In this document: one piece after another, positions 1,495 to 17,175 of the stretch
How positions within the stretch are numbered: the first letter of the stretch is position 1
How the letters are laid out: each line of letters begins with the position of its first letter
Source: a virus
Direction: 5' to 3' (one strand)
Virus record (IMG/VR): IMGVR_UViG_3300030060_007040
Span: 10,940 to 37,336 of that record
Length of the DNA stretch: 26,397 nt
Notes under the pieces: model-generated
What the model was told of the DNA's origin: nothing
The model's database searches: none
The model's input: the letters and a program-made list of their open reading frames with translations, nothing else
Program-made: the position numbers and the translations under genes

Positions 1495-2244
1495 ATGACT
1501 AAGAAAGCTAAAGCCGAAGGTTTAGTACGCATCAAAAGAGATGAAGACGGTCTTATCTCAGATTCTAGCGTAAGCTACGTTTTTGATGACAACGGATTTA
1601 TTGATTGGCGTAAAATGCTAGACGATAAATGGCTCTATCCTAACCCAACCAAAAACCTAAAAGTCACCGATGTTTCTAAATTAGACGACAACGACCTTTG
1701 TGTTCTTTTGCAGGGCTACAAAGAAATTGCCCAAGTCAGGGGCTTTACGAATGTTAAGTATCAAATTTCAGCACCAGCCTCAGATTATGTAGTTGCTAAT
1801 TGCTCTATTGATTGGATTCCAAATTACGAAACAGAAGGCAACCCTGTTACTTTTTCAGCTATAGGTGACGCATCTCCAGCTAACACTAACGGCTTTGGGG
1901 CTCTCTATCTTGGCCCTATGGCTGAGAACAGGGCGTTTGTACGGTGTGTAAGAAGCTTTCTAAAAATAGGTATTGTTGGTCGTGACGAGCTTGCCGCAAA
2001 CGCTGCTGCTTCCAGACCTGTTACTAATCAAATTCCCACAAGTGGAGAAGACAAAGGCGCTAGCGCTGATCCAATTGCGATGCTTTCGTCTTTGATGTCA
2101 GACAAAGGGGTTACATTTACTTCTGTAAAGAAAAAGTTAGTAGAAGAAAATTACGAAGGCGTTGAAAAAATGCAGTCCATAAATCAAATCCCAAAGATTA
2201 AAGCTTTCGAGCTTATAGAAAGACTTAAAAAAGTTAAGTCTTAG
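1495..2244 (+). CDS. Conserved phage protein, possible single-strand annealing (Rad52/ERF-like) protein
   Basis: 249 aa from ATG 1495; an in-frame TTG at 1459 would add 12 residues, but neither start has a convincing ribosome site, so ATG is preferred. The middle has a beta-rich segment ending in VTFSAIGDASPANTNG, followed by the helix MAENRAFVRCVRSFLKIGIV (about 142-161). That layout (strand, 'A-GDA---N', then 'AE-RA--RA-R--L') resembles the core of phage single-strand annealing proteins of the Rad52/ERF type, where such a helix follows the sheet. A Pro/Ser/Gly linker (about 170-192) leads to a small helical C-terminal domain ending in KIKAFELIERLKKVKS, which also fits that architecture. I could not match a diagnostic catalytic or binding residue set, so function stays a hypothesis. 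It overlaps the convergent downstream gene by 11 bases. Confidence 0.75.
   Translation: MTKKAKAEGLVRIKRDEDGLISDSSVSYVFDDNGFIDWRKMLDDKWLYPNPTKNLKVTDVSKLDDNDLCVLLQGYKEIAQVRGFTNVKYQISAPASDYVVANCSIDWIPNYETEGNPVTFSAIGDASPANTNGFGALYLGPMAENRAFVRCVRSFLKIGIVGRDELAANAAASRPVTNQIPTSGEDKGASADPIAMLSSLMSDKGVTFTSVKKKLVEENYEGVEKMQSINQIPKIKAFELIERLKKVKS
2220..2242. terminator. Hairpin in the convergent gene overlap, possible bidirectional terminator
   Basis: AAGACTTAA, a 5-base loop AAAAG, then TTAAGTCTT: a perfect 9-bp inverted repeat. It sits exactly where two convergent genes overlap (stops at 2242-2244 plus and 2234-2236 minus). The stem is AT-rich and neither side is followed by a clean T-run (minus strand continues TCTTTCTATAAG), so intrinsic termination would be weak. 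Position is the main argument. Confidence 0.4.
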
Positions 2245-2557
2245 GGTAATCAGATTTAACTTGCTCTATAAATGCAGTAAGACTATCTAACTTATCTGAC
2301 CTGCCCATGTGATGCTCTGTAATAGCTTCAAACTGCTTCTCCATTGGCCACTCAGACAGTATAGCTTTTTGGCGTTGTACCTGAATATCTCTGTTACTAA
2401 TTTCGGAGCTTTGATTGTCCCACTTATCTTGCAATTCCTCAAGAGTGGGTTTAGCAATTGAATTGTTTTCACCCCAGAAAAGGTCATCATAACTATTGTT
2501 TTTTACGACCCATTCATGTTGTGAGTAAAACGTAGATAATGTTTTTAGTATGTCCAT
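2234..2557 (-). CDS. Putative tail fibre assembly chaperone-like small protein
   Basis: 107 aa, last gene of the leftward adhesin operon. It shows the plan of small proteins encoded just after phage fibres: an N-terminal 'EWVVKNNSYDDLFWGE' segment (about 15-30), a PTLEELQDKWDNQ helix, a conserved-looking RQKAILSEWPMEKQFEAITE segment (about 62-81), and a C-terminal helix ending in IEQVKSDYPK. The pattern 'R---L--WP--EQ--A-----G---L--l---I--VK--YPK' matches the style of XkdW/DUF4376-type and marine-phage fibre-chaperone candidates. Its ATG shares one base with the TAA of the 258-aa gene (TAATG), suggesting coupled translation with its likely client. No cleavage or membrane signals. Function is inferred from position and sequence style. 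Confidence 0.55.
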   Translation of the reverse strand: MDILKTLSTFYSQHEWVVKNNSYDDLFWGENNSIAKPTLEELQDKWDNQSSEISNRDIQVQRQKAILSEWPMEKQFEAITEHHMGRSDKLDSLTAFIEQVKSDYPKT

Positions 2558-3333
2558 TAGTAACTTATTCCTTGAGCTTCTATCTCTGTTACAGTCATAT
2601 ATGATCGGGCTACATCTAATCCGTATGGATTAGTTTGAGTTGAGTTTCTATTTAGATAGACCGTAGAAAGAGAACTGTCTGACCTACCGAGGCGCACACG
2701 CCACGTTTGAGAGTTTGTAGTGCCAGCGGTAGCTACGAAACTTAAAACGGCCATATGACCCATTTGTGGGCCAATAAGGCTATAATTCCAGACTCTTCTC
2801 GGTGATGTTTCATTGTCTTTAAATAATGCGACCACAGCGGCCCCCCAAAAGTCGTTTTCTAAAGATAACTCACAAGAAATTATAAATGTACTGGAAGGAT
2901 GAATAGCTGAAACTGAAGTCGTAGCTATTTCGTAGCCATGCGTATTGTTAGGTGAAATCGTAGGGATAGCTGAGTTAATACCTAAATGATCAGTTATGTC
3001 TGTGACCGTATGACCAATTAGCCTTCTTGGTTCTGCTGTTTGCGCTGGTACTAACGGGTCAAAGTAAAGCTTTGTATAACCCAACTCATTTTGAACTCTA
3101 ACTTCATGCTTGCCAAGAGAAGCGTCCAAAAGCGGCACATTACCATTTATTGTCGTGTCACTTGCCGCAGAAAAAGTAGAAGCAATTTCGTTTTGAAATT
3201 TATCAACAAACAGAACCCCAGTAGCTTGAGTCAAATTTTGACCGCTTACCACAAAAGAATCATTTAAAAGACCATACGAAGGGTTTATAGAGCCTCCAGA
3301 CGGCAGAGAGATAAATTGTATATTAGATGACAT
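2557..3333 (-). CDS. Tail adhesin: N-terminal IPT/TIG-like domain plus C-terminal jelly-roll-like domain
   Basis: 258 aa. Residues about 20-95 read as an IPT/TIG (Ig-like) domain: a SFVVSGQNLTQATGVLFVDK core, a variable loop, then a 'GKHEVRVQNELGYTKL' terminal strand pair. Residues about 105-258 form a beta-rich domain of a type I associate with marine phage fibre tips: 'GYEIATTSVSAIHPSSTFII', then alternating strands with VVALFKDNE, a SFVATAGT turn and WRVRLGRSDS. The layout suggests a jelly-roll, lectin-like receptor-binding module. Start ATG 3333 is one base from the upstream TAA; no Shine-Dalgarno is visible, so it is probably translated by coupling. It is followed by a chaperone-like gene, which supports a fibre-tip role. 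The receptor is unknown. Confidence 0.6.
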   Translation of the reverse strand: MSSNIQFISLPSGGSINPSYGLLNDSFVVSGQNLTQATGVLFVDKFQNEIASTFSAASDTTINGNVPLLDASLGKHEVRVQNELGYTKLYFDPLVPAQTAEPRRLIGHTVTDITDHLGINSAIPTISPNNTHGYEIATTSVSAIHPSSTFIISCELSLENDFWGAAVVALFKDNETSPRRVWNYSLIGPQMGHMAVLSFVATAGTTNSQTWRVRLGRSDSSLSTVYLNRNSTQTNPYGLDVARSYMTVTEIEAQGISY

Positions 3334-3334
3334 A

Positions 3335-5101
3335 TTATGGAGAAGGAGTTAAAAATGTAAACGAACCACTTGAGCCAACAAAAGAAAAGTCGCTCAAATT
3401 CACGTTTATTGAATGAGTTTGATAGTTATAGTTGTCATTTCCAGAATTAGTAAAACTAACAAAAGGATGCAATGCCCCACTTGGATTTACAAAGCTCCCG
3501 CTGGTTATCGCTTTGGTTTCTGAACCATCTGATAAGCTCAAACGGTAAGCGTTCATTAAGTTATTTCCGCTTATTGTTATCTGATCTGTTTTTGTTGCCC
3601 TAGCGCTGCTTATCCCTAAAATAGACGCAGGCTTACCAGAAACGCTAACAGAATTATAATTAGGTATATTTATAACTTTAGAGCCAAAATTTTGTATACT
3701 ATTTAAAGTTCCACCTTCGTAAATTGAAACTAAAAATGGAACGCCAACACCAATCATATTAGCGTTAATTGTGGCTGTAATTTTTGTAACCCCAGTAGTC
3801 AAACTGTCAGATAAAGATAAATTGTTCAAAGACGCCGAACCGTCTTCTCTAGCGCTTTTTATATCATATGCTGTTGGAGAACTCACAAAATATCTACCTG
3901 CAACATTAGAAATTCCCGCGCCTCTGACTTTATCGTTACCATTGATACCAACTAAAGCTCTAGCTTCAGCAGCGTTAACCGCGTCTATAGTAACTTGCTC
4001 TCCAATTACAAAATTTGTAGTAGATAAACCAGTTATGGTTGGTATAGGATAGAAAAATTCAGTTGAAGTATAAGTTCCGTCTGTATCTCCAGTATATCCA
4101 CTGGCAACTAACTGTGATCTCATTATACCTCTCGGAACGCTTACAGTATTACTGTTTAAACCAGTGGCTGTAGAGGTCGCTTCTACATAAGTTTGATTGT
4201 ATCCAGAAAATAGAATTTTCGAAGTTTCTACTTGACTACCATTTATAGTTAAAGAGTCTTCAAATTTACCAGCGCCTGAAGATAAATTCGAAATGTAAGG
4301 CGAAATTACTTTAAGATTAGAAGCAGTGATTATTTCCTCGTCTATTTTTTGAACATAGTTACCATTTGCATAAGAACCGCTTTGATTTTGCAACTTAACT
4401 GGATAGCCGTTTAAAGCTGCCGTAGGGACATTAAAAGATAAACCCGAACTACCACTGTAAATTAAATCCGCGCCTTCTAATACTAACTCTTGTGAAAAAC
4501 CAGTAACAACAACTCTGTTAACTTTATGAAGTGACTTTCCTTGTATAAACCCAGACTCTCCAAACTTTAACCCAGAGGTGGTACTTATATTATTTAAATC
4601 ACCCTCTATAGGTGGAGCTTCTACAGATACTTGAGTTGTAAATTCGCCTCCTTTTGTTTTTACTGTAACATCTCGGCCAGAACCAACAGATATGTCCGAT
4701 GGCATTGTAAACACAACGCTGTTTTCAGACTCTTTGTAATATACAGCTTTCACGCCTTCAACAAAAACGCCCGTAGTTTGATGCAGGTAAGCACCACTAA
4801 TTAAAGCGCTTTCCTCCCATCTTAGAGAGTCGTCTGAAATACCCGAAAAACTAGGTTTTCCAAAAAATCTATACTTACTATCTCCAGTGGCGTAATTAAT
4901 TCCATTGTATACAATAACGTCGTTCAACTCAGGGAGACAACACGGCACAACAACAGATACTTGGGTAAAAGAAGAGTTAAAAGACGAGCTAAGAGTGCCG
5001 ACTTCATTACCTGTTGTGTTAAAAAATACCTGTGTGCTATCTGGATATAAATTTAATCCAGTAATAGTTAAAGTATCTCCTTCTGTAATTTTTTTATACA
5101 T
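3335..5101 (-). CDS. Large adhesin-like tail protein with serial IPT/TIG-like Ig domains
   Basis: 588 aa, almost wholly beta-rich (Ser/Thr/Gly/Val/Asn). Several segments follow the TIG rhythm of 'G--h-I-G--L-----V-h-' then 'h-hPp' then 'V---G': residues about 6-70 (GDTLTITGLNLYPDSTQVFF), 90-155 (ESALISGAYLHQTTGVFVEG), 175-240 (GESGFIQGKSLHKVNRVVVT), 265-320 and about 480-560 (TDQITISGNNLMNAYRLSLS). A CC pair at 54-55 is unusual for a cytoplasm-assembled virion protein. No signal peptide is visible, as expected for a virion component. It overlaps the upstream gene by 8 bases. I infer an elongated stalk or side fibre that displays tips or binds glycans. Repeat borders are estimates. Confidence 0.6.
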   Translation of the reverse strand: MYKKITEGDTLTITGLNLYPDSTQVFFNTTGNEVGTLSSSFNSSFTQVSVVVPCCLPELNDVIVYNGINYATGDSKYRFFGKPSFSGISDDSLRWEESALISGAYLHQTTGVFVEGVKAVYYKESENSVVFTMPSDISVGSGRDVTVKTKGGEFTTQVSVEAPPIEGDLNNISTTSGLKFGESGFIQGKSLHKVNRVVVTGFSQELVLEGADLIYSGSSGLSFNVPTAALNGYPVKLQNQSGSYANGNYVQKIDEEIITASNLKVISPYISNLSSGAGKFEDSLTINGSQVETSKILFSGYNQTYVEATSTATGLNSNTVSVPRGIMRSQLVASGYTGDTDGTYTSTEFFYPIPTITGLSTTNFVIGEQVTIDAVNAAEARALVGINGNDKVRGAGISNVAGRYFVSSPTAYDIKSAREDGSASLNNLSLSDSLTTGVTKITATINANMIGVGVPFLVSIYEGGTLNSIQNFGSKVINIPNYNSVSVSGKPASILGISSARATKTDQITISGNNLMNAYRLSLSDGSETKAITSGSFVNPSGALHPFVSFTNSGNDNYNYQTHSINVNLSDFSFVGSSGSFTFLTPSP

Positions 5102-6524
5102 ATCTGTCTACATTTACAGTCCCACTTCCTAAAGTGTGTTTACCTAGTGCTGTCGTAAACGACCCGCTTTCATGCCTAAGAATATAAGAGCCTTCTTCTA
5201 AAGAGCCGCTCCAAGCATCAAGAATGTTTTCTGAAAAAGTTATATTACCGTATTTTCTTTCTCCATTTGCAAACTTAGAGCAAGCTGCATTTAGGGTGGT
5301 CTCAAAGCCAGTGCATCTAGAGTCTAAAGATGCTACGAATTGTGTGATTGTATGTTCAGGTTGAGCCAACGTACCTGTTGTGTCGTAAATCAATCTGTTT
5401 CTGTTGAAATTAATTTGTATTGAAGCGTCTGGGCAAGTCGAAACAACATTTGCTCCAGAGTAATTTCCACTGATCTGAGGGTTATAGCCTACGTAATAAC
5501 GTTTGTTTACATGCCCTGTAACACCTTGGTAATATGTAGAATCACTTTGCCCACTAAATACGCTTGAGTAACTTGTTGAATTATTGTTAATATTGAATGT
5601 GCTCGTATCGTTAGCTAACTCGTCAATTAATACGCCACTTGCGTTAAAATGACTTATCAAAGGTGTTAGATCAGTCAAAGCGTCTGACAAGGTAGCGCCA
5701 GTTGCGACAATAATACCCAATACAAATTGTCCAGTTTCTACACCAGTAGTGATAGAGTAAGATTGAGTTGTGAAATTTCCATATATACCCGATTGAGTCG
5801 CGTTTGTGGCTGCGATTAAAGTGTTTAATTGGCCTGTAAACTCAACGTATTGATTGCATGGCGAACTGCTGCTACTTGTAGCACTGCTTGAAGTTGGGCC
5901 AGTCGAACTGCTGGTTGCGCTGCTTGTTGCGCTACTTGTTGCGCTACTACTGGTCGCACTACTGCTCGTTGCGCTATCATCAGTAGGCAAACTGCTTGAA
6001 CTACTTGTTGCGCTACTACTCGTCGTGCTGCTACTTGTTGCTGACCCATCATAATTACCAGAAACACATTCTTCCCCACTTATTTCATTGATTGTAAAGA
6101 CACTAGTGCCACCCATGTTTGAATGACTTGCGCAATAAGGGAAAATAGTTGTATTTGAGCCTTCGTGAGCGCGATATTCTGGTACATGAAATTTTACTGA
6201 AGCGCCAGCTTGGCCTCGCACGCCATAATGATATACACCCTCACCAGTTCCTAATGCATGGGCAGAGCCCCCAGCGTGCGTGCCGTCTTGAGTTTCAGAA
6301 AAATTAAACGGATGAGTAGAATTTGTTGAGTCTGATAAATCAAACTTATAGATTTTCATTCCTGTGGGATTCACCCCACAGTCATTGTGGTAATCAAAGC
6401 TTATAGAAACATCTTGCTCCCAACCAGCTAAACCAGAACCACTAAAAAAGAATTCATTTTGGCCACCATAACTACCACCGTTATTGGCTACTTTTACATA
6501 ATATGTTATATGTGGGTCAGGCAT
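5094..6524 (-). CDS. Tail adhesin with cupredoxin-like N-terminal module and Ser/Ala/Thr linker
   Basis: 476 aa in three parts. Residues 1-150 look like a cupredoxin-type beta sandwich: a His-Pro-Phe at 71-73, then 'VYHYGVRGQAGASVKFHVPE', and a FPYCASHSNMGGTSVF loop with Cys131, His134 and Met137. His71 plus that Cys/His/Met loop is the classical ligand order of type 1 copper sites. Similar 'YYC--H--MGG' segments occur in marine phage structural proteins, from memory. Residues 161-221 are almost only Ser, Ala and Thr, a flexible linker encoded by a short-period DNA repeat. Residues about 222-476 form a beta-rich domain with scattered Cys that I do not recognise; it contains a YYVGYNPQISGNYSG stretch. 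Start is one base after the upstream TAA. Likely an accessory adhesin; copper binding is unproven. Confidence 0.6.
   Translation of the reverse strand: MPDPHITYYVKVANNGGSYGGQNEFFFSGSGLAGWEQDVSISFDYHNDCGVNPTGMKIYKFDLSDSTNSTHPFNFSETQDGTHAGGSAHALGTGEGVYHYGVRGQAGASVKFHVPEYRAHEGSNTTIFPYCASHSNMGGTSVFTINEISGEECVSGNYDGSATSSSTTSSSATSSSSSLPTDDSATSSSATSSSATSSATSSATSSSTGPTSSSATSSSSSPCNQYVEFTGQLNTLIAATNATQSGIYGNFTTQSYSITTGVETGQFVLGIIVATGATLSDALTDLTPLISHFNASGVLIDELANDTSTFNINNNSTSYSSVFSGQSDSTYYQGVTGHVNKRYYVGYNPQISGNYSGANVVSTCPDASIQINFNRNRLIYDTTGTLAQPEHTITQFVASLDSRCTGFETTLNAACSKFANGERKYGNITFSENILDAWSGSLEEGSYILRHESGSFTTALGKHTLGSGTVNVDRYV
5862..6044 (-). repeat. Short-period repeat encoding a Ser/Ala/Thr linker
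   Basis: This stretch encodes residues 161-221 of the 476-aa adhesin, built from near-copies of a 12-bp unit. Read on the plus strand, three consecutive units are gttgcgctgctt, gttgcgctactt and gttgcgctacta (5914-5949), each encoding Ser-Ala-Thr-Ser-like tetrapeptides. The rest is more degenerate and is interrupted by LPTDD and TGPT spacers. The 12-bp period keeps the reading frame, so unit gain or loss would change linker length without breaking the protein. Confidence 0.75.
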
Positions 6525-6525
6525 T

Positions 6526-8781
6526 TTAGCAGTATCCGTAGAAATATCCAGTTTCGGTTAAGTTCACGATCTCTCCTGTAGTAAAGTACGAGGGATCACC
6601 AGTGGTGCAGTATTTTCTATTGTTTTGTATTTCTTGAGTAATCAAAGTATTTACCGTACTAATGCTTTGGCCTGAGAAAGTTAAAGTAGTTGAGCCCGTG
6701 GCGCTTCCTGTGATTACAGCAAAACCGCTTGACAGTGAATGCTCTCCTCCCCATCCTGCGGGGTAAAGAATACTCATTCCAGAACTATGAACGTTATGCC
6801 AAATTTGATCGTTAGTGTTTTCTAGCTGTACGGTGCTAAAAGGAAAAGAAATCCCACTTGAATAACTATAACTTTCAAAATTATCTGATATACCAGTTGA
6901 GGTTGAAATTAAATTGTAACCAGAGTAAGCGCCAGTGCCATCCATCATGGCGTTAATTGATGCTAAATTGTCAGAAGCATTATACCCGCTAGCAGAAACA
7001 GTCACTGCTACACCCGTGTCTGTAACGCCTATAACACCAGAAGTAACACCTGTCTCTGAAATGATAGTGCAGAAAAGATTTTGACTACTATTGTAACTGT
7101 TGTACTTGCCTACATTATCGTTTCTTAATTGAGTTATTAATGGTAAAGCCAACGGGCTTCCGCTTATTGTTCCAGTATAAGTTCCAGTTGAAGTAAAAGT
7201 AGAATCAACAGTAGTTTCAGAAGTGGTTTCGCTTGTAACAGAGCAAATCCTTGGGTCTAAATTGTAAGAAACATTTGGGTCGTATGCTCCATATAAGCCT
7301 TGCGTATAAGTACCGCTGTTAAATTTGTTGTAAGCTTCTGTGTCAGCTAGGCTTTCGCTCTGGCCAAGACCTTTAATCGTGTACTCAGTCGTTACTGTTT
7401 GAGTAACGTCTGATTTTTTGCTCAAACTAAAAGTTACGTTTCCAGCGTTGATTGCTCCACCTGAAAAAGCTAAAGAAATTCTATCTGCTTCTCCAGTATT
7501 TAAAAATTCATAAGTTTCAGCGCCAAGAGCGGCGGTCAAATCTGATCCAGAAGTTAATTCTTGTAAATATCTAAAACCGCTTGAAATATAAGTTTCGTAA
7601 CCGTAAGAGTGGCTAACATTATCTAAAATCTGAACAAAGTCTACACCAGTAACAGACGCTCCGCTTTTAGTTATAATTATGTCGTGAAACCCAGTTTCTA
7701 ACCCACTAATAGAAACAGTTAGCTGGCCGCTTGTACTACTAAATCCTGTTGGTATTACTTGAATAGAGTCTTTAGATTTATAAACCACAGAAGTTAGATC
7801 ACTTAACCCAGAACCATTTACAATAGCATTACTAGTAGAACCTTTAGTGTCGGTAATTCTTTGGTTAGGGAATATAAACAGTTGCTGAGATTTATCTGAC
7901 CCGCTAACTTCGCCAGAGGTTATATACTTAGTATCGCTTACTACAGACAAACCAGAATAAAGGTCAAAATATAAAAAGTCATTATACTCACCAGTAGGAA
8001 CAACAGCATTTAAGGTTGTGTTGTTACCGCTGAAATTTAAACCTAAACCAGTACCTAAATTAACACCCGTTATAGAGGATAAAGCGTTACCAAAAATATC
8101 TATAGTTCCACCGCCACTTGCAACTATACTGAAACTGTTTATTCTTGAAAGTGTTACAAAATTGTCTGTGGTCTCAGTTTGTATTCCTGACTCGTTACAA
8201 GTAACAGTGACAGTGGCTTGCTTTACGTTTAAATTGCCAGTATGCTCTACGGTTGCAAACGCAACAAAATTATCCGAAGCGCCCAAAGCTGAAGCAGTCA
8301 CATCACCTAGTCTAGTTTCAGAGATTGTGTAATCACCAGTAGTAAAGCCTGTCGGACCCCCACAGTAACCGCTTTCATGCCCGCTAACAACAAGCCCAGA
8401 AGCTTGAGCTAAAGAGCTACCTGTTGCAGTTATAATGCAAACACCAGAAGCAGTATTATGATCTGTGAATGTTACTTCGCCTGTGGTACAACCAGAAAGA
8501 GCAGTGTTAAAAAACCCTGAAGTATTTATAACACCACTAAGAGCGCTGTAAGCTCCATCGTTACCATCTCCTGTGGCTGTTATGTCAAAAGTCTCTACTG
8601 AATTATTTTTCTCAAAAACAACTTTTCCATAAGTAGCTGTTTGAGGAACAATTGTGTCTAGTACGGTTTCAGAAATTTTATTAAAATTTGCTTGGCCACT
8701 GCCAAACTTAACTCCAGTCACAGAAGTAGCATCAGTTACTTGGAACTGTATCGTGTCTCCTATGTTTCCGCTTACTGGCAT
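6526..8781 (-). CDS. Large adhesin-like tail protein with IPT/TIG-like N-terminal half
   Basis: 751 aa, beta-rich. TIG-like segments are visible at about 4-68 (GDTIQFQVTDATSVTGVKFG then LDTIVPQTATYGKVVFE), 213-285 (GTIDIFGNALSSITGVNLG then LNAVVPTG) and 308-385 (SNAIVNGSGLSDLTSVVYK then GFHDIIITKSGA). The C-terminal half (about 390-751) is a different, unrecognised region with Thr/Ser-rich strands, a TSETTSETTVDSTFTSTGTY low-complexity run near 515-535, and a segment GISFPFSTVQLENTNDQIWH (644-663) that looks globular. Cys are sparse but partly paired (98 and 115; 513 and 571). ATG 8781 shares its A with the upstream TAA (TAATG), so translation is probably coupled. No known family is assigned beyond the TIG-like parts. 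A host-attachment role is inferred from the repeats and the operon. Confidence 0.6.
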   Translation of the reverse strand: MPVSGNIGDTIQFQVTDATSVTGVKFGSGQANFNKISETVLDTIVPQTATYGKVVFEKNNSVETFDITATGDGNDGAYSALSGVINTSGFFNTALSGCTTGEVTFTDHNTASGVCIITATGSSLAQASGLVVSGHESGYCGGPTGFTTGDYTISETRLGDVTASALGASDNFVAFATVEHTGNLNVKQATVTVTCNESGIQTETTDNFVTLSRINSFSIVASGGGTIDIFGNALSSITGVNLGTGLGLNFSGNNTTLNAVVPTGEYNDFLYFDLYSGLSVVSDTKYITSGEVSGSDKSQQLFIFPNQRITDTKGSTSNAIVNGSGLSDLTSVVYKSKDSIQVIPTGFSSTSGQLTVSISGLETGFHDIIITKSGASVTGVDFVQILDNVSHSYGYETYISSGFRYLQELTSGSDLTAALGAETYEFLNTGEADRISLAFSGGAINAGNVTFSLSKKSDVTQTVTTEYTIKGLGQSESLADTEAYNKFNSGTYTQGLYGAYDPNVSYNLDPRICSVTSETTSETTVDSTFTSTGTYTGTISGSPLALPLITQLRNDNVGKYNSYNSSQNLFCTIISETGVTSGVIGVTDTGVAVTVSASGYNASDNLASINAMMDGTGAYSGYNLISTSTGISDNFESYSYSSGISFPFSTVQLENTNDQIWHNVHSSGMSILYPAGWGGEHSLSSGFAVITGSATGSTTLTFSGQSISTVNTLITQEIQNNRKYCTTGDPSYFTTGEIVNLTETGYFYGYC

Positions 8782-9800
8782 TAAGGTATGTCGATTTGGT
8801 TAACTACTGTTACGTTAGATGAAGATACTTCACCGTAAGGCGTAACAACTTTTACTGGACCGCTTTTTGCAAATCTTGGCACTTTTACTTTTATTTGCGT
8901 TGAGCTTCTTTCTCTAAAATCGTTAGTTCTAATTGTATTGTTGAAATATACTGCGGTTGCTTGATCTAAGTTAGTGCCTTGTATCGTTAAAATCTGAAGA
9001 GTGTTTACAGGACCTGGCGCTGTGTTGGTAATTGTCGGAGCAGAGCCGTATCCATTTTCTTCAATGTTTAAAGTAGAAACAACCTTCTCTCCGAAGTTTA
9101 TTGATATATCTTTACTTTGAAGTACGCCTTTGACGCTCCAAAGTGTTGACTGCCCTCTTATGCCTATATCAACACTTATCTCTTTGCCCGTGTGAGGTAT
9201 CGCCTCAAGTATGTTGTAAGTATCCAAAGACAAGCTTTTTATCTTTTCCCCATATCTATGCTCAACGGGAGCGATTCCGCTTATATTATATAGTGGCGTA
9301 AAATTATGAGCTTCGTCATACGATATGGAAGCAATCCTGCTTGTGACATCCATACCCGCCAAACTAACCGTCAAATCTGACATCTTGTACCAATCCCAGT
9401 TTTGATCAGGTAGTATAGTCGGTGAAAACGTACCAGCAAGGTCTTCGTAAAAATTAAAATTAGCGCTAACTTGTAAAACTCCGTGAGGATTTGCGCTCCA
9501 GCTATACGAATTAAGAAATCCAGACTGAATAGTAGTTCCACCCATGTCTATGCTAAATACATTTTGGCCTGGCTTGGCGTCAGCCACGTAAAAAGGGTCG
9601 CCACTATTAGCGTCCACATAGTAATTGAGGCTAAGAGAGCCGTTTATACCGTTTGAAGCTATGTAATTATCACCACCTATACGATTAATACGGGTAGATT
9701 TAGTGAGTTCGTTAGAAAACGACAAAGAAGCAGAATTAGCCAAAATTCCGCTACCATTCACCTTTAGGCTGATATTATTATAATTATAGTAATCTGCCAT
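8781..9800 (-). CDS. Tail structural protein (tube-like, internally duplicated) with C-terminal IPT/TIG domain
   Basis: 339 aa, first gene of the leftward operon. Residues 256-339 are a clear IPT/TIG domain: LQILTIQGTNLDQATAVYFN, then 'STQIKVKVPRFAKSGPVKVV' and TPYGEVSSS. The N-terminal 250 residues look like two copies of one beta fold. Both begin with 'hSL-V-G' followed by 'I-S-S-SF/Y' (residues 9-30 and 143-162), both have a GSLSLNYY/KSLSLDTY strand (54-61 and 188-195), and both end in a strand-rich block ending FNFYED or STLNIEE. That suits a tail-tube or tube-like adaptor protein, comparable to lambda gpV with its C-terminal Ig-like domain. It heads the adhesin operon and lies far from the tape measure, so it might instead be an adaptor that anchors the adhesins. 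A purine-rich AAAGG and AAGGG lie just upstream of ATG 9800. Confidence 0.6.
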   Translation of the reverse strand: MADYYNYNNISLKVNGSGILANSASLSFSNELTKSTRINRIGGDNYIASNGINGSLSLNYYVDANSGDPFYVADAKPGQNVFSIDMGGTTIQSGFLNSYSWSANPHGVLQVSANFNFYEDLAGTFSPTILPDQNWDWYKMSDLTVSLAGMDVTSRIASISYDEAHNFTPLYNISGIAPVEHRYGEKIKSLSLDTYNILEAIPHTGKEISVDIGIRGQSTLWSVKGVLQSKDISINFGEKVVSTLNIEENGYGSAPTITNTAPGPVNTLQILTIQGTNLDQATAVYFNNTIRTNDFRERSSTQIKVKVPRFAKSGPVKVVTPYGEVSSSNVTVVNQIDIP

Positions 9801-9888: not shown

Positions 9889-10395
9889 ATGGGTTCTATA
9901 TATGAAATACCAAGCTGGTCTGCGGGTACGGCTTCGAAAAATGAAGTTTATCTTCATAATAGCAATCACTTCTATAGTTTAGAGGACTCAAACACTCAAA
10001 CACCAGCCGTGGGCGCATCAAAATGGGGCGGTATGACTACTTTTGACAATAAAGAAATACCTCATTTCTTTTGGATTCCCAGTTACTCACCAGTGATCTC
10101 CACGGAGCCATCAGTTAGAACTCTCAAGTTTGGCGATGGGTACGAACAAAGAAGCCCAGATGGTATCAACACTAACCTTCTTAAAATCTCTTTGAACTAT
10201 GATAATAGAGATGAAGCAGAAATTACGGCAATCTCTCACTTCTTACACGAAAGAGGTGGCTCAGAGGCGTTCGCATATTTGCCGCCTTCTCCTTATTCCT
10301 CAATGAAAAAGTTTGTTTGCAGAAAATGGGATGTTACGATGAACTTCGATAACAACTACTCAGTTAAGGTAGACCTAGAAGAAGTAGTGGAATAA
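9889..10395 (+). CDS. M: Minor tail protein, lambda gpM-like, with N-terminal carbohydrate-binding-like module
   Basis: 168 aa, against about 109 for lambda gpM. Residues about 58-168 match the gpM family: VRTLKFGDGYEQRSPDGINT (76-95), a 'DEAEITAISHFLHERGGSEAF' helix, YLPPSPYSSMKKFVCRKWDV, and a closing strand that ends in EEVVE. The extra N-terminus (1-48) reads like a small CBM5/12-type domain: Trp10 in IPSWSAGTASKNEVYLHNSN, then an aromatic strand HFYSLEDSNTQTP, then a terminal WGG. gpM acts at the junction of the tail tip and the tape measure during tail assembly. First gene of the rightward tip operon, with a good AAGGA. The stop is one base from the gpL-like start. The symbol is by homology to lambda. 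Confidence 0.85.
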   Translation: MGSIYEIPSWSAGTASKNEVYLHNSNHFYSLEDSNTQTPAVGASKWGGMTTFDNKEIPHFFWIPSYSPVISTEPSVRTLKFGDGYEQRSPDGINTNLLKISLNYDNRDEAEITAISHFLHERGGSEAFAYLPPSPYSSMKKFVCRKWDVTMNFDNNYSVKVDLEEVVE

Positions 10396-10396
10396 A

Positions 10397-11587
10397 ATGG
10401 ACACCTCAGACGCTCAAAAGTCATTAAAAAAGGTAACAAGGGATGCATCTTCGCTGAACCCTACGGCAATATTGTCTTTATTTGAAATTGATATCACTGA
10501 CCTTTTAAAGAACAATGAAAGAAGCTTACTTATTGAAGGCAGTGGTGGTAGCGCGTATACGACAAACGGTAAAACAATATTAAGGTTTCATAATAACATT
10601 AAACTTTTCAGAAGCTCTATATTCTTTAACTCTCAGGAATATTTTGCAGCGCCTATAGAAATAACAGGATACGAAATTAGCGCTAAAGGTTCACCTCCTA
10701 GACCAAAAATGTCAATTTCTATTGACCCAGAAGGATTGCGCCAAGAATTAAAAGATAGAATTATTTTCATTAAAACAGCAATTAGAGATTTAGATGACCT
10801 TGTAGGCTCTAAAGTAACAAGGCTTAGAACTTTCACTAAGTATATAGATAACTCTAATTTTTATGATGCTAATGGCGATTTACTAACCAACATTGTTAAT
10901 CCACCGCAAGGTTTTGACCCAGACCCAAACGCCCAATTCCCTCCTGACGTTTATTTTGTTGATAGAAAGTCTGCTGAAACCGTAAACGTAATGGAGCTAG
11001 AATTAGCTTCACCATTTGACACTCAAGATTTAAAACTACCTGCTCGCGTTGTAAATGACTTTAACTGCCCTTGGACTTACAGAGGCGAAGGCTGTTGTTA
11101 TGAATGGAACCAGCAAAAAAATTCTGCTGACTCTATTTATGGTAAGTCTGACGACACAAACAACACCCATGAAAACTCTAACTCAGACTGCCTAACAACA
11201 CCAAATCCCGCGCCAAACATTGGAGCAAACCCAAACGGCGCTGCGCCAGCAGTAGCTACCTATAACAACGAATTAATTTCAACTATTATAGGTCAAAGCC
11301 CCCTGTTTAATTCAAACGATGGACAAGACGAATGGAATTCTAACACTAGTTACGGAAAAGGACAAACAATAAGAGTTAAAATAAAAGGTATTAATTATTA
11401 TTTTGTTTCTAAAACAAATAATAACAGAGGTAATGTACCGCCAAATGACACATACTGGGTTGCAGATCAGTGCTCGAAAACAATTGATGGTTGTAGATTA
11501 CGCTGGAAAAACAATCCAGAGCTAGGAACTATTTCTGGCCCTTTGCCTTTTGGTGGGTTTCCAACTTCTAGGAGGGCAGTAGATTGA
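10397..11587 (+). CDS. L: Minor tail protein, lambda gpL-like (Cys-rich, Fe-S type) with an insertion
   Basis: 396 aa, much longer than lambda gpL (about 232). Residues 24-215 are the beta-rich gpL N-terminal domain, including 'IEITGYEISAKGSPPRPKMS' and VNVMELELASPFD. The diagnostic Cys motif follows: DFNCPWTYRGEGCCY (Cys224, 233, 234), with the second pair in DQCSKTIDGCRLRW (Cys359, 366). In lambda gpL the corresponding cysteines are reported to hold an iron-sulfur cluster. Here about 125 residues separate the pairs, including a CBM5/12-like module (about 311-357: EWNSNTSYGKGQTIRVKIKG, then YYFVSKTNNNRGNVPP and YWVADQC). An extra Cys265 also lies in the insert. The C-terminus FGGFPTSRR matches the family's 'FGGF'. 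The TGA overlaps the next TTG start. Role: tail-tip hub assembly. Confidence 0.87.
   Translation: MDTSDAQKSLKKVTRDASSLNPTAILSLFEIDITDLLKNNERSLLIEGSGGSAYTTNGKTILRFHNNIKLFRSSIFFNSQEYFAAPIEITGYEISAKGSPPRPKMSISIDPEGLRQELKDRIIFIKTAIRDLDDLVGSKVTRLRTFTKYIDNSNFYDANGDLLTNIVNPPQGFDPDPNAQFPPDVYFVDRKSAETVNVMELELASPFDTQDLKLPARVVNDFNCPWTYRGEGCCYEWNQQKNSADSIYGKSDDTNNTHENSNSDCLTTPNPAPNIGANPNGAAPAVATYNNELISTIIGQSPLFNSNDGQDEWNSNTSYGKGQTIRVKIKGINYYFVSKTNNNRGNVPPNDTYWVADQCSKTIDGCRLRWKNNPELGTISGPLPFGGFPTSRRAVD
11570..11575 (+). promoter_or_regulatory. Consensus ribosome binding site AGGAGG that decides a TTG start
   Basis: AGGAGG lies 8 bases upstream of TTG 11584. No other start codon is at that distance, so the gpK-like gene almost certainly begins at this TTG. 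This is the strongest Shine-Dalgarno I found in the window. Confidence 0.75.
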
Positions 11588-12303
11588 TTTTAGATAACGA
11601 CATAAAAAAACAGATCAAAGCTGAACACCTAAAAGAGTTCCCTAAAGAGTGCTGTGGGTTAATTGTGTCCAACAAAGGCGTTTTAAGTTGCGTGCCCACT
11701 AAAAATGATTCCTTAGAAAAAGACTTCTTCAGGGTTAACCCAAGGGATTATTTAAAAGCTTCAAACCTTGGTGAAATAGTAGCTGTTTATCATTCTCACA
11801 CGAATGGTAATCAAAACTTTTCTGAATTTGACAAGTTCAACAGCATAAATCACAACATTACTTATGTTATGTATTGCCCCGAAAACAATACTTTGCTGCA
11901 ATTTTCACCTTCTTACAGCGAGTTTAATACCTACGTAGGAAGAAAGTTTGAAATAGGAGAATCGGATTGCTATTCCTTAGTAAGATCATTCTACGAAGCC
12001 GAACTAAAAATAAGTTTGGGTCATTATTACAGAGATCAAAACTGGAGAAGTTATTTGAGTGATCTTTTTGAAAAACATTTTGAAGACGAAGGTTTTTATG
12101 AAGTTAGTAGTTTAAATAAATATGATTGTGTATTATTTAGCAATGGTAAAAATAAACCCTGCTCTCATATATCTTTGTATTTGGGGAATGGTATGATATT
12201 ACATCAGCCTGAAAAAAGCTACTCTAGAATAGAATCACTAACAGGCAGACACTTACAATTAATCAAAAAAGTCATTAGGCACAAAAATGTCACAGCTAAC
12301 TAA
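11584..12303 (+). CDS. K: Tail assembly protein, lambda gpK-like: JAMM peptidase plus NlpC/P60 hydrolase
   Basis: 239 aa, two domains as in lambda gpK. Residues 1-110 are a JAB1/MPN (JAMM) metallopeptidase domain with an intact zinc motif: Glu22 (KECCGLIV) and His70-x-His72-x7-Ser80-x2-Asp83 (YHSHTNGNQNFSEFDKF). Residues 118-235 are NlpC/P60: Cys129 in GESDCYSLVRSFY, and His195 in CSHISLYLGNGMILHQ with His207 following. The family cleaves peptidoglycan peptide bonds, and in phages sits at the tail tip to open the cell wall during DNA entry. The JAMM half may process a tail protein or link to the ubiquitin-like domain of gpI; that is inference. TTG start fixed by AGGAGG; overlaps gpL by 4 bases and gpI by 17. 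Confidence 0.9.
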   Translation: MILDNDIKKQIKAEHLKEFPKECCGLIVSNKGVLSCVPTKNDSLEKDFFRVNPRDYLKASNLGEIVAVYHSHTNGNQNFSEFDKFNSINHNITYVMYCPENNTLLQFSPSYSEFNTYVGRKFEIGESDCYSLVRSFYEAELKISLGHYYRDQNWRSYLSDLFEKHFEDEGFYEVSSLNKYDCVLFSNGKNKPCSHISLYLGNGMILHQPEKSYSRIESLTGRHLQLIKKVIRHKNVTAN

Positions 12304-12931
12304 AATTACTTTTCATGGCAATCTAGCAGAAGCTTTAGGTCAAAAAGACTTCGAGCTTAAGGTAGATAATGTCGCTGAAGGCTTGCGAGCGGTTGACATT
12401 ATTTCTAAACGAAAGCTCTCTAAGGCTATTATTGAAAACGAAAAACAAAACATCAAGTACAAAATCTTAACGGATGAAAAACCGCTTTTTAGCGAGGATA
12501 TAAATGAAATAGAAAAAATAGCTGACTCTGAATTGTTTATAAACAAAAACCATAAAACAATCGATATTGTTCCTGTGCTAGAAGGAGCAGGTGATGACGC
12601 AAAAGATATTGGGTTAGTCTTAGGCGGGGGCCTTTTATTTGGTATTGGCTACGCCATGCAAAGCTCAACAATGATGATGATTGGCGCTTACGCATTTTTA
12701 ACAGGAATGAGTAACCTGCTTGCTGAACCACCAGAGTTTGAAGATTTTAGGGAAATACAGCAGACCAATAAAAGAGAATCGTATCTTTTTAATGGCCCAG
12801 TAAATACCTTTAACCCAGGCGGGCCTGTACCTATAGGCTATGGCCGTGTAATGGTGGGGTCACTTACTATCGCTTATTCTCACGAACACGGAGATAGACT
12901 GATTTTCAACAACGGAACTTATTATAACTAA
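12287..12931 (+). CDS. I: Tail assembly protein, lambda gpI-like
   Basis: 214 aa. Residues 1-95 suit the beta-grasp (ubiquitin-like) N-terminal domain of gpI: 'LTKITFHGNLAEALGQKDFE' then an AEGLRAVDII helix and an 'LFINKNHKTIDIVPVLEGAG' strand end. Residues 108-145 are glycine-rich and hydrophobic (DIGLVLGGGLLFGIGYAMQS then MMIGAYAFLTG), the membrane-like segment typical of gpI. The C-terminal motif ESYLFNGPVNTF...GGPVPIGYGRVMVGS (164-192) is diagnostic of the family. gpI is needed for tail-tip initiation, and the segment may help membrane penetration. Its start lies within the end of the gpK-like gene (17-base overlap), and its TAA shares a base with the gpJ ATG. A JAMM peptidase next to a ubiquitin-like protein is a recurrent phage pairing. 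Confidence 0.88.
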   Translation: MSQLTKITFHGNLAEALGQKDFELKVDNVAEGLRAVDIISKRKLSKAIIENEKQNIKYKILTDEKPLFSEDINEIEKIADSELFINKNHKTIDIVPVLEGAGDDAKDIGLVLGGGLLFGIGYAMQSSTMMMIGAYAFLTGMSNLLAEPPEFEDFREIQQTNKRESYLFNGPVNTFNPGGPVPIGYGRVMVGSLTIAYSHEHGDRLIFNNGTYYN

Positions 12932-15900
12932 TGGCAACCGATAAAGTACAAGGAATTTATTTCGAGGATTCAGGTATTAGATACATGTCTAATACTACAG
13001 GGTATGTCGTTGACTTGCTTTGTGAGGGTGAAATTTCTGGCTTAGTACACCAAGATTACAAAGACAATGGCTCAAATTCCATAGGAACTATAGGTTATAC
13101 CGCTGGTGTTACTACTGTTAATTATTCTTCAAACCCAGATAATGGAGAATTAGCTTCTATATATTGGAATAAAACACCCATATTTGATAAAGACTCTCAA
13201 AAATTTAACTACTCAAACATAGATTTAGTAACTAGTCAAAAAACCGTAGCTGAACAAGGCTTGTCTTCCCGAAGGCTTGTGCAGGTAAATGAAAAGCTCA
13301 GAGGTTTAGAAAGAAAAACTGGAGACACAATCGAGTTTGTTAAATACCATCGCTATTATACAATCAGAAACAAATACTGTAATAAAGCAATTATTAATTT
13401 AAGAGTCAATTCTCTTGGTACGTTAGATAAAAATCCAGGCACTACCAATCAACCAAATGAAACCTACGGGCAACTGCTGGATTCTGATGTTACGGTAAAT
13501 ATTGATTATAGAGCAAAATACGCTTTAGGCGCAGACATACAATACTCTCATGGAGGCAAAGTTGAGATAGAAGGCTCTTTAACTTCGCCTTACGCTAAAA
13601 GCTTTGAGTTAGACCTACCTTTAAATACTGCAAAAGACTCTCAAGGTAGAGGAGACTTTATTGGTTGGGAGATAAGAATTTACAAAAACAAAGAAGAGCC
13701 TACCACCCCAGACGTTAGAAACGAAGTTGTTGTAGACAATATCGTAGAAGAGATAGAAGACACTTTCGTTTACCCTAAAAGTCACGTCATAAAGAACACT
13801 TTCGATGCTGAGAATTTTTCTCAGATACCAGAAAGAGCTTACGACATGAGGCTTTTGAAAGTTAAGATTCCAAGTAATTATGACCCCATCACAAGAACTT
13901 ACGCTGGTAATTGGGACGGGCAATTCTCTACGGAATCACACGCTAACGGAAAAGGAAAATATTGGACCGACAACCCAGCTTGGTGTTTTTATGATTTAAT
14001 TACAAATAAAAGATACGGTCTTGGTAGATATGTAGACACTTCAACGCTTGACAAGTGGACGCTGTATGAAATCGCTAGATACTGTGACGAACTGGTTGAA
14101 GATTACGACAACGGCTTGGAGCCAAGATTTAGCTGCAATATCCTTATACAGTCTCGCTCAGACGCCTACCAAGTCCTTAACGACATGGCAAGTATCTTTA
14201 GGGGCATTGTTTATTACAACGGTGGAAGTTTATTCGCTGTTCAGGACTCATTAAAAGAGCCAGTATTTCAATTTAATAACACGAGTGTTGAAAATGGAGA
14301 ATTTAAATATTCAAGCACTAGCGCTAAAGTACGGCACACGGTAGCCATTGTAAGATACAATGACAGAAATAACAAGTTTGAACCAGCAGTTGAATACGTG
14401 GAGGACATAGATGCTATTAGAAAATACGGCATCAAGGAAAAAGAAATCTCAGCGTTTGGCTGCACAAGTAAATCTCAAGCTCAAAGGCTTGGCCGTTGGA
14501 TTCTTTCTACGGAGGCAAATGAGACCGAAACAGTTTCGTTTACATGCGGTCAGGAAGGGGCCATACTGCGCCCAGGAGACGTTTTCAGCGTCTCTGACTC
14601 TAATAGGAGTATGACTCGGCGTGGCGGCAGAATCAGAGCCTTAGAACGAACCAGTGACTCTAGTTTTAAGATCGCTATTGACTCTCAATTGAAAGGCGGC
14701 AAAAGCTGGGATGGTAATAAATTTGTTACAAATGAGAATTTAGACTCAAAAATTGAATACCAATTAACTGTTTCTACCCCCTCTTTTTATTACGACACTT
14801 CTCAGGTTAATCTTAATAACTCTTCGGAAATAGATTTAATTAGAAACAAGCAAGTACAAACATTTGATATTAGCCCGAACACAGTTGCGTATCATTCAGA
14901 CAGCGGCGTAAGTGTTATAACAGTTAGCGGCAACCTTAATGAAACAGCTTATACAACCAGTGGGTTTAGCGGCGAAGCGTTATGGAGTATAGCCACAACA
15001 GGCGTAAACAATGACGCTGATACTTTTTTTGAAAAGCTGGCTCAAGAGCAAGAGTACAGAGTAATTAATTTAAGCGAAAGAGATAAGGGTAAATACGAAG
15101 TTTCTGCTGCTGAGTATGCTAGAGCTAAGTACGCTGAAATTGATCAAGCAACTAAGCCTGTAAACAGCGTAAATTTTCAAGTCCCAAGTTCTCCGACAAG
15201 CGTAGGCCCAACTACTATTGTGCCAACGAAAATTGATGGAGCACCAAACACAAAACTAGTTACGTTTACGATAGGCCAAAGCGCAGATCACGACACGTCT
15301 GTTTCTTACTATCAAGCTTATATTAAAAAAGGAAGCTATCCAACTGAATCTGATTATGATTCAACAGTTAAAGTTTACTCTTTAAATAATTTAACAGCCA
15401 ACTTTATTCCAGCTTCTAATGGAACTTACTATATAAGGGCTTACGCTTATAATAGTCTTGGCGAATCTAATGGCTCACATGGTTCCGCGCAAAACACAAC
15501 TACAGTTGGAGGCGTTACTCCCGTAAGAGATGTTAGGATAACTCATCTTTCACTTTTTGATGACCTCTTGGGTGGGGCACAAGGCGACACAAGCGACCCA
15601 ACAACACCAGGCTCTATCGATCAGTTCGATGATTCAACAGCGCAGTTTAAATGGCAGACTTCTGTGCCGCAATTTCAAGGAGCTAACATAGCTGTAGACT
15701 TTCAATACAAAGTCGAAGTTTATGACGACACAAGCCTAAGCAACAACGTAAGAACGGTAAATAATTACAAGCCAGATGACGCTGAGTTCTCTAGGACGAC
15801 TTTTGATTATACTTTAGCTAACAACTACGAAGATCATGGAAATAATTACGACAATATTTCTAGACTTATAAGTTTACAAGTCTTTCCTGTGGATGCTGCT

Positions 15901-17175
15901 GGAACAGTCGCAGGAAACGACGGTCAAGGCGATAAATTAATAGTAGAAAATCCAATACCAGCCATTCCAACTGATTTAGAAGGGTTTATTGATTTAGATA
16001 ATCATATTAAAGTGTTTAACTTAAACAGAGCGGTAGACGTAAAGGAGATTGTGGTTCTCTCTGCCCCAGACGATTTTACGTATGAACAATACAGAAATGG
16101 CACAAGAGGCGATATAGATGTTAAAAGGATAAGCGCCGATGTTGATGTTATAGAAATCAACCCAAGCTGGACCACCCAAACTGCTGGCGGTGAAACTGTA
16201 GACGCTTTTTTCATGGTGGCGTATGTTGACCAGTTTGACTTAGACGTTGAAGCTTTGGCTATAGCAAATGGTGATACATTTGATTTAACTAAAAAACTTA
16301 ACGGTAGGTTTTCTGCTCCTTCGGATGGATTTAACTCTCAAAAGATTGAGAAAGTAACTCAAGACACAATAGACCTTCTCGGTGAAGGTTGGAAAGCTTG
16401 GATTCAAATAGACGTTGATGGTAAGTGGTATGGCAGAAATATTAAATGTGTTGAAGATGTAACAGATCAATACTCTGATTACGCTGGTTATATACCATTT
16501 TACTGTACATTTAAAGCTCCTGTTTTTAAATTTGAAAACGTAGCTGGTTTTACATTTGACAGGCTACGATTTACTGCTGGATGTGGTTATTTCTGGGATG
16601 AAGATTTACCCACTTACCCATCAAACATTGCAACTAAAGATATATCTCCCGTGGGAGGGCATACCAATAATAATCAAAGCTTTACAACCACAAATGACAC
16701 TGTAGAGCCGAATAGGACAATTACCGCCACCAAAGGCTTTAAACGTTATAGGGTTCACTTTGAAAAACCAAAAGGAAATCCATACTGGGTTGTTGGTCAA
16801 AATGTCAACAACGAGCCATATTATAGCGACGATTTCTTAACGAACATTAATGCGTTCTTTACGCCAGAAAGCACGGTATCACCAGCTTACGCTCAAGATT
16901 TTAAAGCTGGAGCAATTAAAGCTAAAACTAAAGCCACCACAATGAACGAGTTTAATAACAAAACTTTGCAAATTGGCTCAAGTGACGCTTACTTTAATTT
17001 CCATCCTGCGGGCTTTGTCCAAGGCTTTGGCGGGCTACCTAAAACTTCTCAGTATTTTGATATTCACATGGGCCACCTAGCAGATAAGAGCTATTTATCT
17101 AGAGCTATGTTCTTTGTGATGTCAACCACGGAAGAGACCAAAGGCCAAAAGAGCGCGGGCGATCCACAATGCTAA
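12931..17175 (+). CDS. J: Tail tip host-specificity protein, lambda gpJ-like
   Basis: 1414 aa, somewhat longer than lambda gpJ (1132). Residues about 22-80 hold the gpJ opening (TGYVVDLLCEGEISGLVHQD then an 'IYWNKTPIFD' turn). The central hub region has SKSQAQRLGRWILSTEANET and TCGQEGAILRPGDVFSVSDS (about 515-560), the conserved phage-tail hub core. Residues about 751-858 look like a fibronectin type III domain (VPSSPTSVGP start, NGTYYIRAYAYNSLGES end), followed by a GGVTPVRDVRI linker and a second Ig-like region. The C-terminal third (about 960-1414) has no recognisable family; it includes aromatic-rich stretches (RLRFTAGCGYFWDEDLPTYP) and presumably carries receptor contacts. gpJ forms the trimeric tip that binds the host receptor. 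ATG 12931 is coupled to the gpI stop (TAATG). Confidence 0.88.
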   Translation: MATDKVQGIYFEDSGIRYMSNTTGYVVDLLCEGEISGLVHQDYKDNGSNSIGTIGYTAGVTTVNYSSNPDNGELASIYWNKTPIFDKDSQKFNYSNIDLVTSQKTVAEQGLSSRRLVQVNEKLRGLERKTGDTIEFVKYHRYYTIRNKYCNKAIINLRVNSLGTLDKNPGTTNQPNETYGQLLDSDVTVNIDYRAKYALGADIQYSHGGKVEIEGSLTSPYAKSFELDLPLNTAKDSQGRGDFIGWEIRIYKNKEEPTTPDVRNEVVVDNIVEEIEDTFVYPKSHVIKNTFDAENFSQIPERAYDMRLLKVKIPSNYDPITRTYAGNWDGQFSTESHANGKGKYWTDNPAWCFYDLITNKRYGLGRYVDTSTLDKWTLYEIARYCDELVEDYDNGLEPRFSCNILIQSRSDAYQVLNDMASIFRGIVYYNGGSLFAVQDSLKEPVFQFNNTSVENGEFKYSSTSAKVRHTVAIVRYNDRNNKFEPAVEYVEDIDAIRKYGIKEKEISAFGCTSKSQAQRLGRWILSTEANETETVSFTCGQEGAILRPGDVFSVSDSNRSMTRRGGRIRALERTSDSSFKIAIDSQLKGGKSWDGNKFVTNENLDSKIEYQLTVSTPSFYYDTSQVNLNNSSEIDLIRNKQVQTFDISPNTVAYHSDSGVSVITVSGNLNETAYTTSGFSGEALWSIATTGVNNDADTFFEKLAQEQEYRVINLSERDKGKYEVSAAEYARAKYAEIDQATKPVNSVNFQVPSSPTSVGPTTIVPTKIDGAPNTKLVTFTIGQSADHDTSVSYYQAYIKKGSYPTESDYDSTVKVYSLNNLTANFIPASNGTYYIRAYAYNSLGESNGSHGSAQNTTTVGGVTPVRDVRITHLSLFDDLLGGAQGDTSDPTTPGSIDQFDDSTAQFKWQTSVPQFQGANIAVDFQYKVEVYDDTSLSNNVRTVNNYKPDDAEFSRTTFDYTLANNYEDHGNNYDNISRLISLQVFPVDAAGTVAGNDGQGDKLIVENPIPAIPTDLEGFIDLDNHIKVFNLNRAVDVKEIVVLSAPDDFTYEQYRNGTRGDIDVKRISADVDVIEINPSWTTQTAGGETVDAFFMVAYVDQFDLDVEALAIANGDTFDLTKKLNGRFSAPSDGFNSQKIEKVTQDTIDLLGEGWKAWIQIDVDGKWYGRNIKCVEDVTDQYSDYAGYIPFYCTFKAPVFKFENVAGFTFDRLRFTAGCGYFWDEDLPTYPSNIATKDISPVGGHTNNNQSFTTTNDTVEPNRTITATKGFKRYRVHFEKPKGNPYWVVGQNVNNEPYYSDDFLTNINAFFTPESTVSPAYAQDFKAGAIKAKTKATTMNEFNNKTLQIGSSDAYFNFHPAGFVQGFGGLPKTSQYFDIHMGHLADKSYLSRAMFFVMSTTEETKGQKSAGDPQC

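What the first reader, a model, noticed from the sequence alone, without database searches (positions are those of the whole stretch)
6075..6524. Cupredoxin-like module in a phage tail adhesin
His71-Pro-Phe and the Cys131-x2-His134-x2-Met137 loop have the order and spacing feel of a type 1 copper site, in a beta-rich domain about 150 residues long. Why a virion surface protein would hold copper or keep the fold is open: stability, receptor binding, or redox.
Basis: partly seen in the sequence, partly recalled or inferred. Interest (0 to 1): 0.6.

Follow-up and report, generated by a model that had tools for sequence, protein, structure and literature searches.

The report
Copper-protein domain on phage tail protein
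The front part of this marine phage tail protein is built like the small blue copper proteins of bacteria, with all four copper-holding residues in place, and related phages exchange it for a version from which all four are gone, so many ocean viruses may carry copper on their tails, which I did not find described.

Summary
Residues 1-150 of the 476-aa minus-strand ORF 5094-6524 carry His71, Cys131, His134 and Met137, invariant in aligned relatives down to 28-40% identity. A compact homologue folds at pLDDT 96 and its best solved-structure matches are cupredoxins (three-domain nitrite reductase, rusticyanin, laccases). The His sits just before a strand, the Cys at a strand end, the second His and the Met in the next loop, as in type 1 copper proteins; C-x2-H-x2-M is amicyanin spacing. 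No Pfam or NCBIfam model hits it. At least 592 viral stretches encode relatives; it occurs in cyanophage and pelagiphage tail and baseplate proteins and in marine bacterial and archaeal lipoproteins. Ligands are kept or lost as a set: 140 non-redundant domains have four, 5 have at most one. Close relatives of the window phage carry either a ligand-bearing or a ligand-less form of this domain; the swap is confined to about 470 nt inside colinear DNA, and both forms are under purifying selection. Best reading: an exchangeable tail-surface recognition module of cupredoxin fold with a probable copper site. Metal occupancy, 3D ligand distances and function are not shown.

The parts
5094..6524 (-). 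476-aa tail-region protein: N-terminal cupredoxin-like domain, Ser/Ala/Thr linker, C-terminal domain
   Evidence: ORF list and translation; same architecture in L002/L099, L097, L098, L100; L004-L007 lack the linker
6075..6524 (-). N-terminal cupredoxin-like domain, residues 1-150
   Evidence: homology to a family whose compact member folds at pLDDT 96 with cupredoxin matches
6312..6314 (-). His71, predicted first ligand (THPF), directly before a strand
   Evidence: invariant; strand 73-76 in the model
6132..6134 (-). Cys131, predicted thiolate ligand at the end of a strand
   Evidence: invariant; strand 126-131 in the model
6123..6125 (-). His134, predicted ligand in the loop after Cys131
   Evidence: invariant
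6114..6116 (-). Met137, predicted axial ligand; loop C-x2-H-x2-M
   Evidence: invariant in 38/38; one relative group has C-x2-H-x3-M
5859..6047 (-). Ser/Ala/Thr-rich low-complexity linker, 3' border of the exchanged segment
   Evidence: translation; tandem repeats 5908-6041; quartet sites switch history here
5097..5858 (-). C-terminal domain; 88% identical between L002 and L097 although their N-domains are 42% identical
2234..9800 (-). six-gene minus-strand cluster (339 aa with IPT/TIG, 751, 476, 588, 258, 107 aa) that holds the gene
   Evidence: ORFs; PF01833 in the 339-aa protein; weak tail-fibre PHROG match of the 258-aa protein
9889..17175 (+). adjacent lambda-like tail-tip genes (minor tail proteins, tail assembly protein, central fibre J)
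   Evidence: PHROG and Pfam matches

Best explanation
The domain is a cupredoxin-fold beta-sandwich displayed on the phage tail, with an intact His-Cys-His-Met set that probably binds a single metal ion, most likely copper. It works as an exchangeable surface-recognition module of a tail adhesin. The protein folds without copper in the host cytoplasm, picks the metal up after lysis or in the periplasm, and the metal clamps the Cys-His-Met loop and so shapes or stabilises the host-facing loops. Redox chemistry is not required. Shown: sequence, family, fold of a homologue, all-or-none ligand conservation, local allele exchange, purifying selection on both alleles, tail gene context. Inferred: metal occupancy, identity of the metal, display at the host-facing surface, and the recognition role.
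For: Fold: compact homologue L008:1648-1986 modelled at pLDDT 96.1, pTM 0.88; the first 14 PDB Foldseek matches are all cupredoxin-domain proteins (2dv6, rusticyanins, laccases; probability 0.99-1.00, E about 1e-3); VIA Z 8.3 to 2dv6 (rmsd 2.7, 97 residues) and 8.2 to rusticyanin 2cal (rmsd 3.0, 103 residues), nearly all 50 rows cupredoxins. Ligands: H before strand 47-50, C at the end of strand 91-96, H and M before strand 108-111. Profile alignment to PF00127-type proteins scores 25.8 against a best of 19.5 in 200 column shuffles and pairs H-H, C-C, H-H. All or none: 140 domains with four ligands and 5 with at most one, none with two or three after correcting two register shifts; L097/L098/L100 have Y, A/T, gap, D at the four positions. 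Exchange: in the N-domain 116 of 119 informative quartet sites group alleles by ligand state, elsewhere 100 of 922; L099 and L097 are mostly 80-98% identical outside but 52-65% inside the first 450 nt. Both alleles constrained, dN/dS 0.20 and 0.21. Tail context. In a T7-like pelagiphage-type fibre (L189) the domain is near the C-terminus, away from the N-terminal tail-anchoring PF03906 domain.
Against: No metal has been measured and no ligand distances could be computed. The window domain's own model has pLDDT 61 with weak matches. No Foldseek PDB match reaches E 0.001 and Z values are only near 8. No Pfam copper family matches by sequence. The ligand-less allele shows that the virion does not need a metal in this position. 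Which end of the protein faces outward is not known. Most four-ligand domains were collected by searches whose seeds contained the motif.
Confidence: 0.6

Rival explanations
1. The fold is that of a cupredoxin but the site is empty in the virion: the four residues are kept for packing or hydrogen bonding of the loop, and the module is only a stable beta-sandwich decoration, like the Ig-like domains of other tail proteins.
For: Ligand-less homologues exist and are under purifying selection; the protein is made in the reducing, copper-poor cytoplasm (general knowledge).
Against: Losses are all-or-none, at least three of four residues together in each ligand-less domain, which is expected for a metal site and not for four independent packing residues; Cys and Met are unusual residues to keep invariant on a virion surface (inference).
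Confidence: 0.22
2. Metal-guided docking: copper (or another metal) on the tail is recognised by an outer-membrane metal-uptake receptor or a surface metalloprotein, a copper counterpart of the iron Trojan/Ferrojan Horse hypothesis for tail fibres.
For: The hypothesis exists for iron with HxH motifs in tail fibres (PMC11705849); the module is exchanged between metal-site and site-less forms, as a receptor switch would be.
Against: No receptor is known; type 1 sites are usually buried and hold copper tightly (general knowledge); no linked host data.
Confidence: 0.12
3. Redox or oxidant-defence role: the copper centre exchanges electrons with host surface proteins or scavenges oxidants at the virion surface.
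For: Type 1 sites with H-C-H-M ligands are electron-transfer sites in known cupredoxins (general knowledge).
Against: No second metal centre or redox partner is evident among the window's tail proteins; ligand-less alleles replace it freely.
Confidence: 0.06

Closest known systems
Rusticyanin and the N-terminal cupredoxin domain of three-domain nitrite reductase (PDB 1rcy/2cal, 2dv6)
   Same: Fold and topological position of the His and of the Cys-His-Met loop
   Different: About 10-15% identity; electron-transfer or enzyme domains, not virion proteins; ligand loop spacing differs in rusticyanin (general knowledge)
Amicyanin (small blue copper protein)
   Same: Ligand loop spacing C-x2-H-x2-M (general knowledge)
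   Different: HPF instead of the usual His-Asn at the first ligand; no sequence match found here
Pfam PF00127 Copper-bind (plastocyanin/azurin family)
   Same: Profile alignment with family proteins pairs the ligands
   Different: No hit to the Pfam model itself at E up to 10
PHROG families 27200, 693, 708, 30742, 677 (tail fibre and baseplate wedge proteins)
   Same: Contain homologous domains; isolates S-TIM5, P-HM1, P-SSM7 and S-CAM22 carry the four ligands
   Different: Named by position in the virion or not at all; no copper domain is described
Iron-binding HxH motifs of phage tail fibres (T4 gp37, Alteromonas phage R22Y; PMC11705849)
   Same: Metal held by a phage tail protein, with a proposed docking role
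   Different: Trimeric fibre with HxH motifs and iron; the window domain has no HxH and a different fold

Membership tests
cupredoxin fold superfamily | Greek-key-type beta-sandwich of about 7-8 strands matching solved cupredoxins | tested here: met
   Compact homologue: 9 strands, pLDDT 96, best PDB matches cupredoxins; the window domain by 43-47% identity to it, its own model being weak
cupredoxin fold superfamily | type 1 ligand set His ... Cys-x(n)-His-x(n)-Met in order, His before one strand and the rest around the last loop | tested here: met
   Sequence, invariance and DSSP positions
cupredoxin fold superfamily | the four ligands lie within bonding distance of one metal | not testable with these tools
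   Model coordinates are not released; only topology is known
blue (type 1) copper proteins | copper bound, absorbance near 600 nm, type 1 EPR | not testable with these tools
   needs purified protein
Pfam PF00127 Copper-bind | match to the family model above its cut-off | tested here: not met
   no hit for the domain or its relatives
phage tail protein | gene inside a tail module | tested here: met
   lambda-like tail genes next door, TIG-domain and tail-fibre-like neighbours
phage receptor-binding protein | binds the host surface | not testable with these tools
   only the allele exchange is consistent with it
HxH iron-binding tail fibre | HxH motifs | tested here: not met
   no H-x-H in residues 1-150 of the translation

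The most novel reading that the evidence does not exclude
A very common, undescribed class of marine phage tail modules carries a real type 1 copper site, and phages switch between copper-bearing and copper-free alleles of the same domain by recombination to change host recognition, so that copper is a determinant of phage-host specificity in the ocean.
Probability: 0.2. Interest if true: 0.88.

Novelty: new variant of a known kind. Interest (0 to 1): 0.64.

Why it matters
If copper is bound, many ocean phages would carry single copper atoms on their tails, which bears on how they attach and on marine trace-metal budgets; the iron Trojan Horse idea would have a testable copper counterpart. The paired natural alleles with and without the ligand set, in otherwise closely related genomes, give a ready-made control for what the metal does.

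Tried and rejected
Pfam, NCBIfam and PDB sequence searches gave no relative. The direct model of the window domain was weak (pLDDT 61) and its best VIA rows were SO1698, described as an aspartic peptidase, Z 7.2, with cupredoxins just below; the confident homologue model ranks cupredoxins first, so SO1698 was set aside. Chance origin of the motif was rejected. Decay of the ligand-less allele was rejected: dN/dS 0.21. Whole-gene replacement was rejected: the exchange is confined to about the first 470 nt. A search with the degenerate 7-sequence alignment and a DNA motif scan could not be run as posed. Ten literature searches found no paper on cupredoxin domains in phage tails; zero papers hold both 'cupredoxin' and 'tail fiber', but the library is open-access only.

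Full report
What is there. The stretch 6075-6524 is the 5' third of a 476-aa minus-strand ORF, 5094-6524. The protein has an N-terminal domain of about 150 residues, a Ser/Ala/Thr-rich linker and a C-terminal domain. His71, Cys131, His134 and Met137 are at the stated places. The window is part of a 37,336-base IMG/VR virus record. The gene lies in a six-gene minus-strand cluster that includes a TIG-domain protein, next to plus-strand lambda-like tail genes: minor tail proteins, a tail assembly protein and a central fibre J.

Family. No Pfam, NCBIfam or PDB sequence matches the domain. It matches PHROG families of tail fibre and baseplate proteins. In annotated phages 54 records match, nearly all cyanophages and pelagiphages, many in tail fibre, baseplate and virion structural proteins. 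In bacterial and archaeal genomes the same domain occurs in SAR86, SAR92, OM182, K189A and marine group II archaeal proteins, several with lipoprotein-like N-termini, and in apparent phage or prophage genes. His71, Cys131, His134 and Met137 are invariant in a 38-sequence alignment with 28-82% identity to the window.

Fold. The window domain itself models poorly (mean pLDDT 61; blocks around the site 72-83), with cupredoxins and SO1698 as weak matches. A compact homologue (L008:1648-1986), 43% identical to the window domain in the alignment, models at pLDDT 96.1. Its first 14 PDB matches are cupredoxin-domain proteins with probability 0.99-1.00, though E stays near 1e-3, and VIA gives Z 8.3 to the N-terminal cupredoxin domain of nitrite reductase 2dv6 and 8.2 to rusticyanin. 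In both models the first His sits just before a strand, the Cys ends a strand and the second His and the Met lie in the following loop, the cupredoxin arrangement. The spacing C-x2-H-x2-M is that of amicyanin (general knowledge). A profile comparison with PF00127-type proteins fetched from marine genomes aligns His, Cys and His with their counterparts and scores above all 200 column-permuted controls; its HHalign probability is only 22%, so it supports rather than proves the relationship.

All or none. With a profile whose four ligand columns were masked, 145 non-redundant domains were recovered from all fetched loci: 138 score H-C-H-M directly, two more have all four after a one-residue register shift (L148 with C-x2-H-x3-M, and L254), and five have at most one (L230, PSS2, S-IOM18, second copies in S-CAM22 and P-SSM7). 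Some cyanophage proteins carry two or more such domains, one with and one without the set. Joint loss of the residues is what a metal site predicts. Many of the four-ligand domains were collected with motif-bearing seeds, so their share is inflated; the absence of intermediates is the informative part.

Two alleles. A search with the C-terminal domain found L097, L098 and L100, whose N-domain is homologous (42-44% identity) but has Tyr, Ala/Thr, a gap and Asp at the four ligand positions. L002 (same contig as L099) and L097 are 88% identical in the C-domain and 42% in the N-domain; the window and L002 are 68% and 82%; L097 and L100 are 69% and 87%. Along the DNA, L099 and L097 are mostly 80-98% identical over 4 kb on both sides, with a second dip about 600 nt upstream, and fall to 52-65% in the first 450 nt of this gene. 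In the quartet window, L099, L097, L100, 116 of 119 informative sites in the N-domain group sequences by ligand state, against 100 of 922 elsewhere (Fisher p about 1e-88, sites treated as independent). Within each allele dN/dS is about 0.2, so the ligand-less form is a maintained alternative and not a decaying copy. Since the wider family has the ligands, loss on the L097/L100 branch is the simpler history (inference).

How it probably works. Localised exchange of a maintained pair of alleles at one domain of a tail protein is a usual mark of a surface-recognition module (inference). In a T7-like pelagiphage-type fibre the domain lies near the C-terminus, far from the tail-anchoring PF03906 domain, which also points to an outward position. 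The best-supported mechanism is a cupredoxin-fold recognition module whose metal, probably copper taken up after lysis, clamps the Cys-His-Met loop. My estimates: cupredoxin fold 0.93, metal occupancy about 0.7, copper as the metal about 0.65, recognition role about 0.55.

Known or new. Cupredoxin domains are well known; their presence in phage tail proteins was not found in the open literature searched. The nearest idea is iron held by HxH motifs in tail fibres and the Trojan Horse hypothesis (PMC11705849). This is a new variant of a known kind.

Noticed in passing
window 17926-26271 (-): 2781-aa ORF whose C-terminus (VLAEQKRPGGMLYG) resembles a tape measure protein but lies on the strand opposite to the J tail module; no Pfam or PHROG match of note.
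   Followed up: partly
window 279-1466 (+): Protein with a glycosyltransferase family 9 (heptosyltransferase) match, PF01075, near the tail genes.
   Followed up: no
window 2557-3333 (-): 258-aa protein with a weak match to the Pgp3 C-terminal domain (PF05475, below cut-off) and to a tail fibre PHROG.
   Followed up: no
L264 and L265 (P-SSM7, S-CAM22 baseplate wedge proteins): Two homologous domains in one protein, the first with all four ligands and the second with none.
   Followed up: partly
L207, L215, L216, L225, L227 (MGII archaea, K189A, SAR86): Apparent lipoproteins of abundant marine microbes carry the same ligand-bearing domain, some beside cadherin or collagen-like repeats; possible cellular relatives or source of the phage module.
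   Followed up: no
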